Part shown: positions 20,953 through 28,312 of the stretch, piece by piece
Layout of the letters: each line of letters starts with the position of its first letter
How positions within the stretch are numbered: the first letter of the stretch is position 1
Source of the DNA: Tistrella mobilis KA081020-065
GTDB taxonomy: Bacteria > Pseudomonadota > Alphaproteobacteria > Tistrellales > Tistrellaceae
Assembly (NCBI RefSeq): GCF_000264455.2
Contig: NC_017958.1
Location: 935,001-999,000 of the forward strand
Length of the DNA stretch: 64,000 nt
Direction of reading: 5' to 3'
The notes under the pieces: generated by a model
What the model saw: the letters and a program-made list of their open reading frames with translations, nothing else
Database searches by the model: none
Told to the model about the DNA's origin: nothing
Position numbers and translations under genes: made by a program

Positions 20953-21948
20953 ATGATGTCGTCTGACACGCCGACCGGCGGATCGACCCGCCCCGGAGGG
21001 GGGAGCGGTCTGGATCCGCGTCTCAGACGGGCACAGGCCCGTCACGCCTTTGCGATTCTGGTGCTGCCCGCCATCGGCAGCCTGATCGCCATCGGCATCG
21101 CCGTCCATGACGGTGGCGTCCCGGCCGCGGCCCTGGTGATTCTGCTCGTGTCCTATATGGCCACCTATGCCGGCATCACCGTCGGGCTGCACCGGCTGTT
21201 CGCCCATCGCGCCTTCGAGACCACGCCCTGGCTGCGCGCGGTGTTCGCCGTGCTCGGCTGCATGGCGGCCCAGGGACCGGCGATCTATTGGGCCGCCAAT
21301 CATCGGGTCCATCACATCCGGTCGGACCGTGACGGCGACCCGCACAGTCCGCGGATCGCGAACGGGCGGCAGCTGGGACGCTGGGAAGGGTTCTGGCACG
21401 CGCAGGCCGGCTGGACCTTCAGCCATCGCCCGGCCGATGTCTTCGCCGTGACCCGCGACCTGACCCGCGATCGGCGGCTGATGTGGATCAACCAGCGCTA
21501 TCTGTGGTGGGTGGCCCTGGGGCTGATCCTGCCGGCGCTCGCCGGTGCGCTCGCCATCGGCGGCATCCGGGGCGCGGTGTTGGGCCTGCTATGGGGCGGC
21601 GCGGTGCGGCTGACCCTCAGCTATCACTTCACCAATGCGATCAATTCGCTCACCCACATGATCGGCACCCGGCCCTTCGGCGGCCGGAATACATCCACCA
21701 ATCTCTGGCCGATCGCCCTGCCGACCCTGGGTGAGGCCTGGCACAACAACCACCATGCCTTCCCCACCTCCGCCCGCTTCGGCCTGGCGGTCTGGGAGGT
21801 GGATATCGGCTGGTGGATCATCCGCAGCCTGGAAGCCGTGGGGCTTGCCTGGAATGTCCGCCGCCCCCTGCCCGAGAGCATAAGCGCCAAGCGCGCCGCA
21901 GCCGCCGCGGGCATGCAGGTCGACGACGACGACCGCGTGACGGCCTGA
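20953..21948 (+). CDS. membrane fatty acid desaturase (delta-9/acyl-CoA desaturase family)
   Basis: Integral-membrane di-iron desaturase that introduces a cis double bond into an acyl chain. The three histidine boxes are intact: HRLFAH (80-85), HRVHH (117-121) and HNNHH (264-268). Two hydrophobic hairpins (about 32-75 and 183-230) place the boxes on the cytoplasmic face. It is 331 residues. The tandem ATGATG at 20953 is preceded by GAAGGGGGG; use of the second ATG would differ by one residue. It lies directly upstream of the ACP/FAAL cluster on the same strand but with a 191-bp gap holding a hairpin and a new promoter-like region, so it may be a separate unit. Acyl-CoA, acyl-lipid or acyl-ACP could be the substrate. 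Confidence 0.92.
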   Translation: MMSSDTPTGGSTRPGGGSGLDPRLRRAQARHAFAILVLPAIGSLIAIGIAVHDGGVPAAALVILLVSYMATYAGITVGLHRLFAHRAFETTPWLRAVFAVLGCMAAQGPAIYWAANHRVHHIRSDRDGDPHSPRIANGRQLGRWEGFWHAQAGWTFSHRPADVFAVTRDLTRDRRLMWINQRYLWWVALGLILPALAGALAIGGIRGAVLGLLWGGAVRLTLSYHFTNAINSLTHMIGTRPFGGRNTSTNLWPIALPTLGEAWHNNHHAFPTSARFGLAVWEVDIGWWIIRSLEAVGLAWNVRRPLPESISAKRAAAAAGMQVDDDDRVTA

Positions 21949-22003: not shown

Positions 22004-22032
22004 GAAATTATCGCGCTGAACGCGAAATTTTC
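22004..22032. promoter_or_regulatory. imperfect inverted repeat upstream of the ACP cluster, candidate operator
   Basis: GAAATTATCGCG and CGCGAAATTTTC (10 of 12 positions complementary) flank a 5-bp spacer CTGAA, about 110 bp upstream of the ACP ATG. A TATATC hexamer follows at about 22047. No regulator gene is adjacent, so the binding protein is unknown. Confidence 0.4.
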
Positions 22033-22139
22033 TCTGTTCTTAGGTCTATATCATGTGCATATCAACCCAAGATTGAGTGTTTTCCAGCCTCTCAGACCCT
22101 TCCAACGCCGGGCGCAGCCCGCAGCCGGAGACCTGTTCC

Positions 22140-22436
22140 ATGAACACCCAGACCACGCTTCCTGGCGCCCAGCAGGCCGCCGCTGGTGCCCGGGCGGCCA
22201 CCCGCCCCGATGCCGCTGCCATCGAGGCCTGGCTCGTCGACTATCTGGCCGACCGCCTGGGCCGCGATCGCTCTGAAATCCGACGGACCGAACGCTTCGA
22301 GCGCATGGGCGTCGACTCGCTCGCCGTCGTTTCGATGACCGGCGAGCTGGAAGAATGGCTCGGCCGTAAGGTGGAGCCCACACTCGCCTATGATCACCCC
22401 ACCGTCCAGGATCTTGCAGCCGCCCTTGCCGGCTGA
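22140..22436 (+). CDS. acyl carrier protein, stand-alone, PKS/FAAL type
   Basis: A 98-residue carrier protein. The phosphopantetheine attachment Ser60 lies in RMGVDSLAVVSM, followed by the typical helix II/III sequence GELEEWLGRKVEPTLAYDHPTVQDLAAAL. This YDHPT-type ending is that of carriers from polyketide/FAAL systems and not of the housekeeping AcpP. An N-terminal Ala/Gln-rich tail of about 25 residues precedes the four-helix domain. The ATG at 22140 is used; the frame is open to 22077 without homology. It is the first gene of a co-directional cluster (22140-27502) and presumably receives the acyl chain from the fatty-acyl-AMP ligase. Confidence 0.9.
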   Translation: MNTQTTLPGAQQAAAGARAATRPDAAAIEAWLVDYLADRLGRDRSEIRRTERFERMGVDSLAVVSMTGELEEWLGRKVEPTLAYDHPTVQDLAAALAG

Positions 22437-22463
22437 GGCCGTGCCCCGACCGGAGTTCGCGCC

Positions 22464-23363
22464 ATGTCACCTGATACCAACCAGATCCATCCCACCAGCC
22501 CTGCCGGCGGCCACCCCGGCACGTCGTCGGATGCGCTGCGCTCGCATTACGACATCGGGACCGACTTCTTCGGTCTGTGGCTCGACCCGTCGCTGACCTA
22601 TTCCTGCGCGCTCTACGAGGCCGGCGATACCGATGATCCGGCGGGCTTCCTGGCCGCCCAGACCCGCAAGCTGGACTTCCACATCGACCAGGCCCATGCC
22701 GCCGGCGCAGAGCGGGTGCTGGATATCGGTTGCGGCTGGGGGTCGATGATGCGGCGGCTGGCGGAACGCGGCGCAGGCCACGTCACCGGCATGACCATGA
22801 CCGAGGCCCATCGCACCCATGTGACGGGCTTCGGCGATCCCAGGCTCGAGGTCGCCCTGACCCCCTGGGCGGGGTTCGAGCCCGAGGCGCCCTATGACGC
22901 CATCGTGTCGCTGGAGGCTTTCGAACATTTCGCCCGGCTGGACTCGACCGAGGCGGAAAAAAAGGCCGGCTATCGTGCCTTCTTCGAACGCGCCCATTCC
23001 TGGCTGAAGCCCGGCGGGCGGATGTCGATCCAGACCATCGTCTACGGCCGGGCGACCAAGGCGGATTTCAGCACCTTCTGCGCCGCCGAGGTCTTCCCCG
23101 ACAGCGACCTGCCGCGCCTGCACGAGATCATGGAAGGCTGCGACCGCCTGTTCGAGGTGGAGCGCCTGCGGTGTGACCGCCAGATGTATGTCCGCACCTT
23201 CCAGAGCTGGCTCGACGGGCTTCGGGCCAATCGCGCGGCGGCCGAGACCATCGTCGGTCCCGCCGTGGTCGATCGGTTCGAGAAGTATTGCGGCGTGTTC
23301 ATGATCGGCTTCCACACCGGCGCCATGAATCTGGCCCGGATCGGCTTCCGCAAGGCCGGCTGA
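22464..23363 (+). CDS. cyclopropane-fatty-acid synthase-family SAM methyltransferase
   Basis: 299 residues. The CFA-synthase hallmark HYDIGTDFFGLWLDPSLTYS lies at about 28-47, followed by the SAM loop VLDIGCGWGS (85-94) and later the SLEAFEHF and LKPGGRMSIQTI segments. CFA-family enzymes add a methylene or methyl group across a cis double bond of an acyl chain. This one lacks the N-terminal lipid-binding domain of E. coli Cfa (about 90 residues), as is usual for the mycolic-acid-type and natural-product members. Set between an ACP and a FAAL gene, it probably acts on an ACP-bound or lipid-bound unsaturated chain. The exact reaction cannot be read from sequence. Confidence 0.85.
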   Translation: MSPDTNQIHPTSPAGGHPGTSSDALRSHYDIGTDFFGLWLDPSLTYSCALYEAGDTDDPAGFLAAQTRKLDFHIDQAHAAGAERVLDIGCGWGSMMRRLAERGAGHVTGMTMTEAHRTHVTGFGDPRLEVALTPWAGFEPEAPYDAIVSLEAFEHFARLDSTEAEKKAGYRAFFERAHSWLKPGGRMSIQTIVYGRATKADFSTFCAAEVFPDSDLPRLHEIMEGCDRLFEVERLRCDRQMYVRTFQSWLDGLRANRAAAETIVGPAVVDRFEKYCGVFMIGFHTGAMNLARIGFRKAG

Positions 23364-23378
23364 GCGAAGGGGGCGTCG

Positions 23379-25163
<1,785 letters not shown>

Positions 25164-25166
25164 CGG

Positions 25167-26330
25167 ATGGAACCTGCCTGGTCGGCGCAAGAGGAGCTGC
25201 GCATCTTCCGCCATGCCGTGCGCGGCTTTCTGGCCACGGAATTCGTACCCCGGCTCGACGCCTGGCGCGCGCAGGGTATCGTCGACCGCCAGACCTGGAC
25301 GGCGGCGGGTGCGATGGGCCTGCTGCTGACCGAACACGACCCGGATCTGGGCGGCGGCGGCGGCAGTTTCGCGACCGAGGCGATCGTCTACGAAGAGCTG
25401 GCGCGGATCGGCGACACATCCTTCTGCAAGGGCGTGCATGAATGCTGCGCGGGCTATATCCGCGCCTATGGCACGCCCGAACAGCAGCGCCGCTGGCTGC
25501 CGGACCTTGCCGCCGGGCGGCGCATCGGCGCCATCGCCATGACCGAGCCCGGCAACGGATCGGATCTGAAGGCGGTGCGCACCACCGCCCGGCCGCAGGG
25601 GGACCATTATCTGGTCTCGGGCTCCAAGACCTTCATCTCCAACGGCGCCTCGGCCGATCTGATCCTGCTGGTGGCGACGGTGGACCCGGCGGCGGGCGCG
25701 AAAGGCGTCACCCTGCTGGTGCTGGAAACCGACGACCTGCCCGGCTTCCGCCGCGGCCGGCGGCTTGCCAAGATGGGCCAGTGCGGCCAGGACACCTCGG
25801 AACTCTTTTTCGACGACATGATCGTGCCGGCCGCCAATCGGCTGGGGGCGGCGGATGGTCTGGGGTTCGGCCAGCTGATGTCGCAGCTGGCCTATGAACG
25901 CCTGATCATCGCGGTGCAGGCGGTGACCTTTGCCGAGCGCGCGCTGGCGCTCGCCGTCGACCATGCCATGACCCGCGAGACCTTCGGCCGGCCGCTGATC
26001 GACCATCAGGCGCTGCGCTTCTCCCTGGCCGATGCCCGCACCGAAGCCCATACCGGCCGGGTGCTGGTCGACGACTGCATCGCCCGCATCATCCAGGGCC
26101 GGCTGGACGCCGAAACCGCGGCCATGGCCAAGCTCTGGACCACCGAGATGCAGGGCCGTGTGGTCGATGCCTGCCTGCAGGTCTTCGGCGGCGCGGGCTA
26201 CATGGCCGAACACCCGCTGGCACAGATGTATGTCGATGCCCGCGCCCAGCGGATCTATGCCGGCTCCAACGAGGTGATGAAGGAAATCGTCGCCCGCGGT
26301 CTGGCGACATTGAAGGGGTCCCTGCAATGA
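25167..26330 (+). CDS. acyl-CoA dehydrogenase-family flavoprotein
   Basis: FAD enzyme of 387 residues that introduces an alpha,beta double bond into an acyl thioester. FAD/substrate motifs AIAMTEPGNGSDL and FGGAGYMAEHP, and the C-terminal RIYAGSNEVMKEIV, are clear. The glutamate that acts as base in medium-chain enzymes (Y-E-G) is alanine here. Glu244 in LAYERLII matches the alternative helix-G base of isovaleryl- and long-chain dehydrogenases. It starts 3 bp after the FAAL gene and its last 4 bases overlap the next start (ATGA). In this setting an ACP-bound substrate is plausible, as in other FAAL-linked dehydrogenases, but CoA cannot be excluded. Confidence 0.92.
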   Translation: MEPAWSAQEELRIFRHAVRGFLATEFVPRLDAWRAQGIVDRQTWTAAGAMGLLLTEHDPDLGGGGGSFATEAIVYEELARIGDTSFCKGVHECCAGYIRAYGTPEQQRRWLPDLAAGRRIGAIAMTEPGNGSDLKAVRTTARPQGDHYLVSGSKTFISNGASADLILLVATVDPAAGAKGVTLLVLETDDLPGFRRGRRLAKMGQCGQDTSELFFDDMIVPAANRLGAADGLGFGQLMSQLAYERLIIAVQAVTFAERALALAVDHAMTRETFGRPLIDHQALRFSLADARTEAHTGRVLVDDCIARIIQGRLDAETAAMAKLWTTEMQGRVVDACLQVFGGAGYMAEHPLAQMYVDARAQRIYAGSNEVMKEIVARGLATLKGSLQ

Positions 26331-27502
26331 CCGATATCCGGCCGCTCGACGAGGCGCGCATGGCGGAAGCCCGCGCGCTCTACGACCACCTGACCGGCAA
26401 TGGCAGCCGGTTCCTGCGCGTGGGGGAGCTGCTGACCGCAGGGGCGGAAACGGCCCCCGGGCTGCTGCCGGATGCGCAGACCCTTGCAGCCGAAGCCGCC
26501 CGGCCGCTTTCGGCCAAAACCGGGGTGGAGATGGCCCAGGCGCTGTTCCTGCAGGCGATCTTCGCCGACCGCGCCCGCGGCCTGCATCTTTGCCATGCGA
26601 TGCAGTTGCCCCGCCCCGAGGCCGCCGCCAATGCCGCGCGGCTCGCCCGGGACGGCGTGCTGGATCTGGGGCTGGTCCGGGTGGAACGGCACGGCCGGCT
26701 GCTGGTGGTGGAGAACCGCAATGCCGGCCGGCTGAATGCCGAGGACGTGCCCACCATCGACGCGCTGGAACATGCGGTCGATGCCGCCCTGTTGGACGAG
26801 GAGAGCACCGCCTGCATCCTGCGCGGCGGCGTGGTCGACCATCCCCGCTATGCCGGGCGCCGGCTGGCGGGGGCCGGGCTGAACCTCACCGATCTCTACG
26901 AGGGCCGCGTGCCCTATGTGATGTATATCGAGCGCGAAATGGGCTGGGTCGCCAAGGTCTTCCGCGGCCTGGCGGCCCCCGACCGCCTGCCCGACGAACT
27001 GGCCGAGACGCGCGAGAAGGCCTGGATCGGGGTGATCGACGGCTTCGCGATCGGCGCGGCCACCCAGGCGCTGCTGGTCTGCGACGCGGTGGTGGCAGAG
27101 GCCGGCAGCTGGTTCAACGTGCCCGCCCGCAAGGAAGGGCTGGTGCCGGGGTGCACCAATCTGCGCCTGCCGCGGATCATGGGCGACCGGCTGGCCCGCC
27201 AGATCATCATGAACGGCCGCACCATCCGCGTGGACGAGCCCGAAGCCCGGCTGCTGATCGACCGCGTGGCCGAACCCGACGGGCTGGAGACGGCGATCGA
27301 CGAGGTGGCGGCCGATCTGGTCGATGGCGGCGTGGTCTCGATCGCCGGCAACCGCCGCGCCTTCCGGGTGGCCCAGGAACCGCTGGACCTGTTCCGCGCC
27401 TATCTTGCAATCTATACCCGCGAGGTGGCGGTCTGCCATCTGAGCCCGGCGCTGGTTGCCAATCTGGAACGGCACTGGACCGGGCGGAAGGCGCGCGGCT
27501 GA
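26327..27502 (+). CDS. DpgC-like crotonase-fold enzyme (possible cofactor-free dioxygenase)
   Basis: 391 residues overlapping the dehydrogenase by ATGA. The N-terminal helical half (1-100) precedes a crotonase core with LVVENRNAGRLNAEDV, ILRGGVVDHPRYAGRRLAG, IDGFAIGAATQALLVCD and VPARKEGLVPGCTNLRLPRI. The order and many residues resemble 3,5-dihydroxyphenylacetyl-CoA 1,2-dioxygenase DpgC, which uses O2 without cofactor and releases CoA while making a glyoxylate. The helical N-domain, absent from ordinary hydratases, supports this over enoyl-CoA hydratase. No dpgA/B/D genes are nearby, so the substrate is not the DpgC aromatic. An acyl thioester from this cluster is inferred. Confidence 0.75.
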   Translation: MTDIRPLDEARMAEARALYDHLTGNGSRFLRVGELLTAGAETAPGLLPDAQTLAAEAARPLSAKTGVEMAQALFLQAIFADRARGLHLCHAMQLPRPEAAANAARLARDGVLDLGLVRVERHGRLLVVENRNAGRLNAEDVPTIDALEHAVDAALLDEESTACILRGGVVDHPRYAGRRLAGAGLNLTDLYEGRVPYVMYIEREMGWVAKVFRGLAAPDRLPDELAETREKAWIGVIDGFAIGAATQALLVCDAVVAEAGSWFNVPARKEGLVPGCTNLRLPRIMGDRLARQIIMNGRTIRVDEPEARLLIDRVAEPDGLETAIDEVAADLVDGGVVSIAGNRRAFRVAQEPLDLFRAYLAIYTREVAVCHLSPALVANLERHWTGRKARG

Positions 27503-27507
27503 GCGCC

Positions 27508-28218
27508 TCAGGCAGTGGCGACCCAGCCCCGCCAGGTGAAGGCGGCGAAAAACAGGCTGACGTCGCGGAAGCCGCCCTCCTCCAGGATCGCGGTGTCGGT
27601 GGCGGGGTCAAAGGTCATCAGGCTGCGGCGCACCGCTTCGCAGGCACCATTGGTCTGTTCGACATCCGCGCCCATCGACACCGCATAGGCGGCATAGCGC
27701 GACAACCAGAGATCGCGTTCCGCCGCCTCTTGCGGAAAGCTGGAATGGGCGGCGACGAACGGCGCACCGGGCACCAGGCGGCGGTGGATCTCCGCCACCG
27801 TCCGTCGGCGTTCGGCCGCGTCCAGAAAATGCAGGGTCAGCAGGCAGGTTGCGGCATCGAAGGGCCCCTCGGGTGCATCGTCGATATGGCCCTCGACCAG
27901 ATCGACCCGCGCGGCCAGCTTCCCCAGCGTGCGGCGGGCCAGCCCCAGCATTTCGGATGATGGATCCACGCCGGTGAAGCGCCAGCCGGGCTGTGCCTCG
28001 GCCATGGCCTTCAGCTCCAGCCCGCCCCCGGCGCCCAGCACCAGGATCCGGGCATCGGCCGGCACCCGTTCGGCCAGCAACAGCCAGGTCATGCGGTGCA
28101 GCGCCTCCAGCCCCGGCACGAAGCGCCGCGGGCCGTCGGCATAGGCGGCCACCGCCTCGGGGTTGCAGAAATGGCTGACGAGATCGGCCGTGCCGCCATC
28201 GGCAGGGGTGTCCGACAT
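27508..28218 (-). CDS. class I SAM-dependent methyltransferase
   Basis: 236 residues. A SAM-binding stretch ILVLGAGGGLELKAMA lies near residues 58-73, then the acidic strand end FTGVDPSSEMLGLARR and the post-motif LTLHFLDAAERRRTVAEIHRRL. It is a small-molecule type Class I methyltransferase; the substrate is not identifiable. It converges on the DpgC-like gene with 5 bp between stops, so its link to that cluster is only positional. The ATG at 28218 is preferred; the extension to 28281 crosses the palindromic operator-like sequence. Confidence 0.82.
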   Translation of the reverse strand: MSDTPADGGTADLVSHFCNPEAVAAYADGPRRFVPGLEALHRMTWLLLAERVPADARILVLGAGGGLELKAMAEAQPGWRFTGVDPSSEMLGLARRTLGKLAARVDLVEGHIDDAPEGPFDAATCLLTLHFLDAAERRRTVAEIHRRLVPGAPFVAAHSSFPQEAAERDLWLSRYAAYAVSMGADVEQTNGACEAVRRSLMTFDPATDTAILEEGGFRDVSLFFAAFTWRGWVATA

Positions 28219-28241
28219 GAGATGCTGTCCTCCGGATCCTA

Positions 28242-28266
28242 ATTCGTAACTTACGATGATACGAAT
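28242..28266. promoter_or_regulatory. nested palindrome upstream of the methyltransferase gene
   Basis: TCGTAACTTACGA (28244-28256) is a perfect 13-bp dyad. ATTCGTA (28242-28248) and TACGAAT (28260-28266) form a second inverted repeat using the same left arm. It lies 24-48 bp upstream of the minus-strand start, the position of a repressor site. No regulator gene is adjacent. Confidence 0.4.
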
Positions 28267-28312
28267 ATGGATGAAGGTCAACAGGGGGGATCGCGCGGCG
28301 GCGGCGGTCGGG

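What the first reader, a model, noticed from the sequence alone, without database searches (positions are those of the whole stretch)
22140..27502. ACP / CFA-methyltransferase / FAAL / acyl-CoA dehydrogenase / DpgC-like cluster with no named product
Five co-directional genes, coupled from the FAAL onward (3-bp gap, then ATGA overlap), encode a dedicated acyl pathway. The FAAL loads the stand-alone ACP (Ser60). The flavoenzyme makes an alpha,beta-enoyl thioester and the CFA-type enzyme adds a methyl or methylene group. A DpgC-type crotonase could oxygenate and release the chain as an alpha-keto acid. There is no polyketide synthase, thioesterase or reductase to hand the chain on, so this is not a standard hybrid cluster. 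I do not know a described system with this set. A previously undescribed lipid modification or signal-molecule pathway is possible.
Basis: partly seen in the sequence, partly recalled or inferred. Interest (0 to 1): 0.85.

Follow-up and report, generated by a model that had tools for sequence, protein, structure and literature searches.

The report
Fatty-acid tailoring operon with oxygenase exit
Six neighbouring bacterial genes appear to load a fatty acid onto a carrier protein, desaturate and methylate it, and then perhaps release it with an unusual oxygen-using enzyme, a combination for which no described pathway was found.

Summary
The five genes are real and where stated: ACP (22140-22436, Ser60), CMAS/CFA-type methyltransferase, FAAL, LCAD-like acyl-CoA dehydrogenase and DpgC-like crotonase (to 27502), with the 3-bp gap and ATGA overlap. 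All six keep their order in 3 of 3 genomes held of the family, under purifying selection. Outside it the DpgC-like protein occurs without CMAS, desaturase or ACP (0 of 11 loci read). The CMAS protein's six strict plasmid relatives all lie next to an ACP and within 3 kb of a FAAL, four of six also next to the desaturase, but with other exit genes: P450 plus thioesterase, ketosynthase PKS, or a LuxI signal synthase. Tistrella has the dehydrogenase/DpgC pair there. Best reading: a carrier-bound, desaturated, perhaps methyl-branched chain is made allylic by the dehydrogenase, oxygenated at C2 and released as a 2-oxo acid. Loading and tailoring are well supported by sequence; oxygenolytic release is a guess (about one in three), because the oxyanion loop and N-terminal arm depart from DpgC.

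The parts
   Evidence: PF00487 80 bits; three His boxes HRLFAH 80, HRVHH 117, HNNHH 264; conserved in 3 of 3 family genomes; its 3 strict plasmid hits (E<=1e-40) lie 0.28-0.45 kb from the CMAS relative in the same records
22140..22436 (+). stand-alone acyl carrier protein (98 aa, Ser60 attachment site); a longer GTG start at 22077 is possible
   Evidence: PF00550 56.7 bits, scanned from the GTG; GVDSL Ser60
22464..23363 (+). CMAS/CFA-type SAM methyltransferase (299 aa), perhaps a methylase rather than a cyclopropane synthase
   Evidence: PF02353 178 bits; Gln190 at the position of His in mycolic CMAS
23379..25163 (+). fatty acyl-AMP ligase that loads the ACP (594 aa)
   Evidence: PF00501; solved relatives 7r7g 502, 3kxw 400, 3pbk 275 bits; CoA-rejection residues W217, M224, F272 with the EcFAAL spacing 7 and 55
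25167..26330 (+). acyl-CoA/acyl-ACP dehydrogenase, LCAD-like (387 aa); supplies a C=C next to the thioester
   Evidence: PF00441, PF02771, PF02770; 2pg0 307 bits, mitochondrial LCAD 8w0t 289 bits; Glu244 in the ER motif, Ala365 at the MCAD base position
26327..27502 (+). DpgC-like crotonase (391 aa), proposed oxygenating release enzyme
   Evidence: DpgC structures 5kag/2np9 263 bits over residues 14-364; NF042432 321 bits; residue table
22011..22025 (+). small GC hairpin followed by a T-rich tail between desaturase and ACP; possible terminator of the desaturase transcript, at chance level
   Evidence: 2 terminator-like sites found, 2.3 expected from shuffles; the three genomes' stretches were compared by eye

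Best explanation
A self-contained, carrier-protein-bound fatty-acid tailoring pathway. (1) FAAL adenylates a free fatty acid and loads the holo-ACP. (2) The membrane desaturase puts a double bond in the chain. (3) The CMAS-like enzyme transfers a methyl group to it, perhaps giving a methyl-branched alkene. (4) The LCAD-like dehydrogenase puts a second double bond next to the thioester, either C2=C3 or, as predicted for TamT of tambjamine biosynthesis, C3=C4. (5) The translationally coupled DpgC-like enzyme removes a proton to give a thioester dienolate, adds O2 at C2, and releases the ACP as the peroxide collapses, giving a beta,gamma-unsaturated 2-oxo acid, the end product or a signal precursor. 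The allylic C=C would do what the aryl ring does in the DpgC substrate (dihydroxyphenylacetyl-CoA): make C2 acidic enough to react with O2. Shown by sequence only: the six families, their order and conservation. Inferred with fair confidence (about 0.75): steps 1-3. Inferred with moderate confidence (about 0.6): step 4. Guess (about 0.35): step 5 as oxygenation rather than another crotonase reaction.
For: Six-gene order and purifying selection. FAAL-specific CoA-rejection residues present, which favours an ACP-bound chain. Sister modules: 6 of 6 strict plasmid relatives of the CMAS protein have an ACP directly upstream and a FAAL within 3 kb; 4 of 6 have the desaturase; 5 of 6 have a candidate exit gene (PF00975 thioesterase in Thalassospira and Pseudonocardia, ketosynthase PKS in Polaromonas, LuxI-type synthase in two Sphingobium, PF00765 tested in one), while Tistrella has only the dehydrogenase/DpgC pair there. 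DpgC residues E189, R254, Q299, A319 are identical in 19 of 19 rows. Two Streptomyces operons with a family member in the pglA position of a phenylglycine-like gene order suggest, by inference, that an unhydroxylated arylacetyl-CoA can be a substrate of the family. A dehydrogenase acting on a FAAL-loaded chain at C3-C4 has a predicted precedent, TamT (PMC5939613, passages). ATGA coupling of dehydrogenase and DpgC-like genes.
Against: The DpgC-like protein scores below the DpgC cut-off (321 against 530 bits). Gly296 and Gly297 of the oxyanion loop are both Ala, a combination in none of the other 18 rows, and the N-terminal arm present in 16 of 17 other family loci is missing. No DpgC-family member is known to me to take an aliphatic or ACP-bound substrate (recalled). 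Several proteobacterial relatives sit near CoA ligases, crotonases or dehydrogenases, which suggests CoA rather than ACP substrates. The paper that calls PglA a dioxygenase on phenylacetyl-CoA lists pglA in its Table 1 as phenylglycine dehydrogenase, and I did not check that PglA is a DpgC-family protein (PMC7089894, passages). The ten window genes scanned with Pfam include no electron-transfer flavoprotein or phosphopantetheinyl transferase; the rest of the genome was not searched for them. The predicted structure failed (mean pLDDT 47.7), so the pocket was not examined.
Confidence: 0.3

Rival explanations
1. Same tailoring pathway, but the DpgC-like protein is not an oxygenase: it isomerises, hydrates or hydrolyses the enoyl-ACP (as RpfF-type crotonases do for DSF signals; recalled) and releases an unsaturated or hydroxy fatty acid, perhaps a diffusible signal.
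For: Altered oxyanion loop and missing arm; score below the DpgC cut-off; the sister module in Sphingobium is tied to a LuxI synthase and a small HTH protein, i.e. to signalling.
Against: The DpgC model is far above the next crotonase model (321 against 55 bits), and L237 and A319, O2-pocket residues of DpgC as I recall them, are kept.
Confidence: 0.34
2. The ACP chain made by desaturase, CMAS and FAAL is used by an NRPS or PKS coded elsewhere in the genome; dehydrogenase and DpgC-like protein only finish the starter unit.
For: The genome has 33 condensation-domain matches, 14 of them on the same contig at 674-724 kb; FAALs commonly prime PKS and NRPS (PMC11837247, passages).
Against: The nearest is about 230 kb away, and the NRPS regions hold AMP-binding domains 31-37% identical to this FAAL (C3 349 kb, C4 683 and 709 kb). 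Of the sister modules only Polaromonas has a PKS beside it.
Confidence: 0.14
3. Membrane-lipid modification: the desaturated, methylated acyl chain is passed to phospholipids.
For: UfaM-type enzymes act on phospholipid chains (PMC7380195, passages).
Against: This CMAS is 299 aa against 415-416 aa for the two own-genome paralogues, one CFA-type and one UfaM-type, so the genome already has such enzymes; it is paired with FAAL and ACP; no acyltransferase in the set.
Confidence: 0.07
4. Catabolic use: dehydrogenase and DpgC-like protein are a CoA-linked degradation pair placed by chance beside a separate FAAL/ACP module.
For: Several proteobacterial DpgC-like relatives lie near CoA ligases and crotonases; the dehydrogenase's 15 listed plasmid relatives (of 1,894 records, 52-55% identical) are annotated as plain acyl-CoA dehydrogenases where annotated, three of them beside a MaoC gene.
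Against: 3-bp gap and ATGA overlap link FAAL, dehydrogenase and DpgC-like genes, with the same spacing in the two other genomes.
Confidence: 0.12

Closest known systems
DpgC (3,5-dihydroxyphenylacetyl-CoA 1,2-dioxygenase)
   Same: 263 bits to DpgC structures over 350 residues; E189, H222, L237, R254, Q299, A319 kept; thioester cleavage plus C2 oxygenation would fit the missing exit step
   Different: no DpgA/B/D, aminotransferase or NRPS beside it; oxyanion loop GAA; no N-terminal arm; presumed aliphatic ACP substrate
TamA/TamT (tambjamine): FAAL-ACP plus dehydrogenase predicted to install the 3,4 double bond
   Same: FAAL loads ACP, an FAD enzyme acts on the carrier-bound chain (PMC5939613 passages)
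   Different: no desaturase, methylase or DpgC-like gene is mentioned in the passages read; release there by a thioester reductase/transaminase
MbtL/MbtM/MbtN (mycobactin ACP, FAAL, acyl-ACP dehydrogenase; recalled, NCBIfam names MbtM and MbtN)
   Same: ACP + FAAL + dehydrogenase triad
   Different: the dehydrogenase here scores 122 against a 700-bit MbtN cut-off; no siderophore genes among the six
Jamaicamide-type FAAL/ACP/desaturase starters
   Same: FAAL, ACP and desaturase (PMC11837247 passages)
   Different: feeds PKS/NRPS; lacks a methylase and DpgC-like gene as I recall it
UfaM/UfaD/UfaO furan fatty acid pathway
   Same: SAM methylation of an alkene, further desaturation, then O2 chemistry (PMC7380195 passages); Gln in place of His shared with proteins that I call UfaM-type by their DUF1365 neighbours
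   Different: acts on phospholipid chains; UfaO is a DUF1365 protein, not a crotonase; UfaM-type proteins lack the Cys that is kept here
Desaturase-ACP-CMAS-FAAL modules of Polaromonas, Thalassospira, Pseudonocardia, Rhodococcus (and ACP-CMAS-FAAL with LuxI in Sphingobium)
   Same: homologous core, CMAS 37-51% and desaturase 38-49% identical
   Different: different exit genes, the two searches that bear on them, listed no paper on such a module

Membership tests
FAAL | bulky residues that block the CoA pocket (EcFAAL W224, M231, F279) | tested here: met
   W217, M224, F272 with identical spacing 7 and 55; matched by motif and spacing, not by an alignment to 3PBK
FAAL | similarity to solved FAALs | tested here: met
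   7r7g 502, 3kxw 400, 3pbk 275 bits
FAAL | NCBIfam FAAL model cut-offs | tested here: not met
   every FAAL model among the 25 of 102 matches shown stays below its cut-off, e.g. 378 against 600 bits
DpgC | score above NCBIfam NF042432 cut-off | tested here: not met
   321 against 530 bits
DpgC | active-site residues (E189, H222, L237, R254, Q299, A319; list recalled) | tested here: met
   all six kept
DpgC | Gly-rich oxyanion loop GGGxQ | tested here: not met
   GAATQ; Gly296 kept in 17 of the other 18 rows, Gly297 in 16 of 18
DpgC | N-terminal arm of about 50-60 residues | tested here: not met
   absent; present in 16 of 17 other family loci (L009 also lacks it; the PDB row was cut); in-frame upstream codons show no arm by eye
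DpgC | co-location with DpgA/DpgB/DpgD | tested here: not met
   none among the neighbouring genes scanned
DpgC | O2-dependent conversion of an arylacetyl-CoA | not testable with these tools
   needs enzyme assay
Cyclopropane synthase (CMAS/CFA) | CMAS fold and SAM site | tested here: met
   PF02353 178 bits, LDIGCGWG
Cyclopropane synthase (CMAS/CFA) | bicarbonate ligands Cys, Glu, His, Tyr (recalled from CmaA1) | tested here: not met
   Cys48, Glu154, Tyr242 kept, His is Gln190; Gln in 7 of 7 cluster enzymes; His in 19 of 19 CFA-type and Gln in 31 of 31 UfaM-type proteins, 50 of 67 matches examined; Cys in 19 of 19 CFA-type and 0 of 31 UfaM-type
Acyl-CoA dehydrogenase, LCAD/IVD type | catalytic Glu on helix G, none at the MCAD position (recalled) | tested here: met
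   Glu244 in AYERL, Ala365 in IYAGSNE
MbtN acyl-ACP dehydrogenase | NF037942 cut-off | tested here: not met
   122 against 700 bits

The most novel reading that the evidence does not exclude
A cofactor-free dioxygenase of the DpgC family has been recruited to an ACP-bound aliphatic chain: a partner dehydrogenase supplies the C=C that replaces the aryl ring, and O2 cleaves the carrier thioester to give a beta,gamma-unsaturated, methyl-branched 2-oxo acid. It is one exit of an exchangeable cassette (desaturase, ACP, CMAS-like methylase, FAAL) that occurs in Pseudomonadota and Actinomycetota with at least four different exits (dehydrogenase/DpgC, P450/thioesterase, ketosynthase PKS, LuxI), so that the cassette makes a family of undescribed lipid signals or effectors.
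Probability: 0.25. Interest if true: 0.82.

Novelty: new variant of a known kind. Interest (0 to 1): 0.62.

Why it matters
FAAL/ACP pairs are mostly read as starters for PKS or NRPS. Here the pair appears to serve a complete small-lipid pathway, and the same core occurs in two phyla with exchangeable exits, including a quorum-sensing synthase. If the DpgC-like step is an oxygenation, cofactor-free O2 chemistry would reach aliphatic acyl-ACPs for the first time that I know of (recalled), and the dehydrogenase/oxygenase pairing would give a simple chemical reason (vinylogous acidity) that can be tested in one assay.

Tried and rejected
Structure prediction of the DpgC-like protein from a 4-row alignment gave mean pLDDT 47.7 and was not used; no fold search was run.

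Idea that the CMAS Gln marks only ACP-linked enzymes: rejected, because two stand-alone CMAS proteins (L050, L051) and all 31 UfaM-type proteins carry it. Against a plain UfaM reading: 0 of these 31 have Cys at the position of Cys48, while 19 of 19 CFA-type proteins do; among the seven cluster enzymes four have Cys and three Ser. The 50 proteins are related, so the Gln/His split may be one evolutionary event; it is a correlation. The UfaM-type label rests on DUF1365 genes in the flank of 20 of 31 and on the paper's statement that UfaO holds DUF1365; R. sphaeroides UfaM itself was not aligned.

Idea that the DpgC-like gene marks the cluster outside the genus: rejected. DpgC-like matches: 9 of 385 genomes of the class at E<=1e-40, three of them the genus itself; 3 of 398 of the phylum at E<=1e-60, one of them the window's own; 3 loci in genome contigs; in the 11 non-genus loci read (L009-L011, L023-L029, L053) no CMAS, ACP or desaturase match at E<=1e-3. 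The genome-contig scan uses exact peptide patterns and misses distant relatives. The alignment holds the 10 non-genus loci then held and 7 of the 14 plasmid records that cover 80% of the protein; the other 7 were not fetched, and the two other genomes of the genus and L052 are not in it.

CMAS matches at E<=1e-60: 5 of 385 genomes of the class, three of them the genus; 1 of 398 of the phylum, the window's own.

Regions read that added nothing: Tsukamurella plasmid beside the nearest dehydrogenase relative, Streptomyces L040 and L049 (records without usable annotation), Streptomyces L043.

Phage link: PHROGs gave no family for the DpgC-like protein. Sigma-70-like promoters: none; terminators at chance.

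Paper searches: (all 10 used). None of the listed titles and abstract starts described this gene set. Papers opened, passages only: PMC11837247, PMC11301661, PMC7089894, PMC7380195, PMC12089945, PMC5939613, PMC8460268, PMC10548524. Most subscription papers are not in that library.

Full report
Where it is. The window is bases 935001-999000 of contig C4 (1,126,962 bases) of a 6.5-Mb, five-contig genome. From memory, not from a call, this size fits plasmid pTM3 of Tistrella mobilis KA081020-065, and the NRPS genes at 674-724 kb of C4 fit its didemnin cluster. I use the names Tistrella and, for its class, Alphaproteobacteria on that recalled basis.

What is there. Six co-directional genes: desaturase 20953-21948, ACP 22140-22436, CMAS-type methyltransferase 22464-23363, FAAL 23379-25163, acyl-CoA dehydrogenase 25167-26330, DpgC-like crotonase 26327-27502. 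A gene on the other strand follows tail to tail (27508-28281), so the operon probably ends there. It belongs: at E<=1e-40 its only three plasmid relatives (Polaromonas, Rhodococcus, Pseudonocardia) lie 0.28-0.45 kb from the CMAS relative in the same three records. A small hairpin between desaturase and ACP is at chance level; separate transcription is possible.

Conservation. Three genomes of the family are held; 3 of 3 have the DpgC-like gene and all six genes in order, at 94.6-99.0% protein identity. NG86 dN/dS between the window and G162 is 0.10, 0.04, 0.05, 0.12, 0.07, 0.08 for the six genes in order; against G033, which is closer, 0.11, 0.04, 0.07, 0.22, 0.10, 0.30. All ratios are well under 1.

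The core recurs, the exit changes. At E<=1e-45 the CMAS protein has six plasmid relatives. Six of six have an ACP directly upstream and a FAAL within 3 kb; four of six have the desaturase (Polaromonas, Thalassospira, Pseudonocardia, Rhodococcus; no match in the stretches of the two Sphingobium records). Exits: P450 + PF00975 thioesterase in Thalassospira and Pseudonocardia; in Rhodococcus a P450 (read by eye) at the same place, while the ORF in the thioesterase place gave no Pfam match; ketosynthase PKS in Polaromonas, where an insertion sequence also lies between FAAL and desaturase; a LuxI-type synthase in the two Sphingobium records (PF00765, 89 bits, tested in L039; the L042 protein is alike by eye). 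Tistrella has dehydrogenase + DpgC-like protein. Two CMAS relatives in another genus of the class show none of the other five genes in 16 kb, so the methylase is not always ACP-linked.

FAAL and ACP. The FAAL resembles solved FAALs (502 bits to 7r7g) and has the three bulky residues that close the CoA pocket in FAALs (PMC8460268, passages; found by motif and spacing). The ACP has GVDSL at Ser60. So an ACP-bound chain is the likely working form.

Methyltransferase. It has Cys48, Glu154 and Tyr242, but Gln190 in place of the His of mycolic CMAS (the roles of these residues are recalled). Seven of seven cluster enzymes have this Gln. As a control I took 50 of the 67 matches (58 genomes of the class): 31 of 31 in the UfaM-like group have Gln, 20 of them with a DUF1365 gene in the flank; 19 of 19 in the CFA-like group have His, none with DUF1365. 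UfaM makes a methylated alkene without a ring, and UfaO holds DUF1365 (PMC7380195, passages). Against this: Cys48 is as in 19 of 19 CFA-like proteins and in 0 of 31 UfaM-like ones. A methyl-branched product is mildly favoured, not shown.

Dehydrogenase. Nearest solved relatives are 2pg0 and mitochondrial LCAD 8w0t (307 and 289 bits); the base is of the LCAD type (the rule is recalled). TamT, which acts on a FAAL-loaded chain, is predicted to make a 3,4 double bond (PMC5939613, passages). Whether this one acts at C2-C3 or C3-C4 is unknown.

DpgC-like protein. 263 bits to DpgC structures, 42.5% identical over 348 aligned positions. In 19 rows (window, 17 loci, PDB stretch) E189, R254, Q299 and A319 are invariant. 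Departures: GAATQ for GGGxQ (Gly296 is Ala only here and Ser in one row; Gly297 is Ala only here and His in two Burkholderiales rows), and no N-terminal arm (present in 16 of 17 loci). Two Streptomyces loci (L045, L046) put a family member before PDH alpha/beta, a hydrolase, MbtH and an aminotransferase. Apart from MbtH this is the order of pglA-E of phenylglycine biosynthesis. The text of PMC7089894 says that the dioxygenase PglA turns phenylacetyl-CoA into benzoylformyl-CoA, but its Table 1 calls pglA a phenylglycine dehydrogenase (passages). That L045 and L046 are phenylglycine operons, and that their DpgC-like protein oxygenates phenylacetyl-CoA, is my inference; PglA itself was not compared. 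If right, the family does not need a hydroxylated ring, only an activated C2.

Mechanism. In the DpgC substrate the aryl ring stabilises the C2 carbanion. A saturated chain would hardly react. A 3-enoyl thioester (or a 2-enoyl thioester deprotonated at C4) gives a dienolate, which can meet O2 at C2 in the same way. This would explain why dehydrogenase and DpgC-like gene are coupled, and why no thioesterase is present. It is inference; the altered oxyanion loop may instead mean a changed reaction (isomerase, hydratase or hydrolase), which I rate as about equally likely.

Relatives without the core. Outside the genus the DpgC-like gene is found beside a CoA-ligase-like gene and a crotonase (L053), a CoA-ligase-like and a CoA-transferase-like gene (L011; read by eye in part), or a dehydrogenase 30% identical to this one (L025, L026). 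None of 11 loci read has CMAS, ACP or desaturase. The gene was probably recruited from CoA-linked metabolism.

Verdict. A real, conserved six-gene pathway for which I found no description; a new combination of known parts with a recurring core. The oxidative release is open and cheap to test.

Noticed in passing
L039:4216-8764 and L042:6191-10639 (Sphingobium plasmids): A LuxI-type synthase (PF00765, 89 bits in L039), preceded in L039 by a small protein with sub-cut-off LuxR/sigma-type HTH matches, is directly followed by ACP, CMAS-like methylase and FAAL: a homoserine-lactone synthase that seems to have its own FAAL-loaded, methylated acyl supply. One paper search listed nothing on it.
   Followed up: partly
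L045:6758-12798 and L046:6767-12599 (Streptomyces plasmids): DpgC-family gene in phenylglycine-like operons (PDH E1 alpha/beta, hydrolase, MbtH, aminotransferase, NRPS), annotated only as enoyl-CoA hydratase/isomerase.
   Followed up: partly
L054 (own genome C1:2939400) and L058-L107: Gln/no-Cys versus His/Cys at two CMAS positions separates UfaM-like from CFA-like enzymes cleanly in 50 proteins of the class; could serve as an annotation rule.
   Followed up: partly
L035:1753-16674 (Polaromonas JS666 plasmid 2): The sister cluster is framed and split by IS1380, ISL3 and IS21 elements and its second ketosynthase protein is only 518 aa, so it may be decaying.
   Followed up: no
L053:7612-11790: CoA-ligase-like, DpgC-like and crotonase genes in a row, with an SDR gene next, in a genome of the window's class: looks like a CoA-linked oxidative degradation operon.
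   Followed up: no
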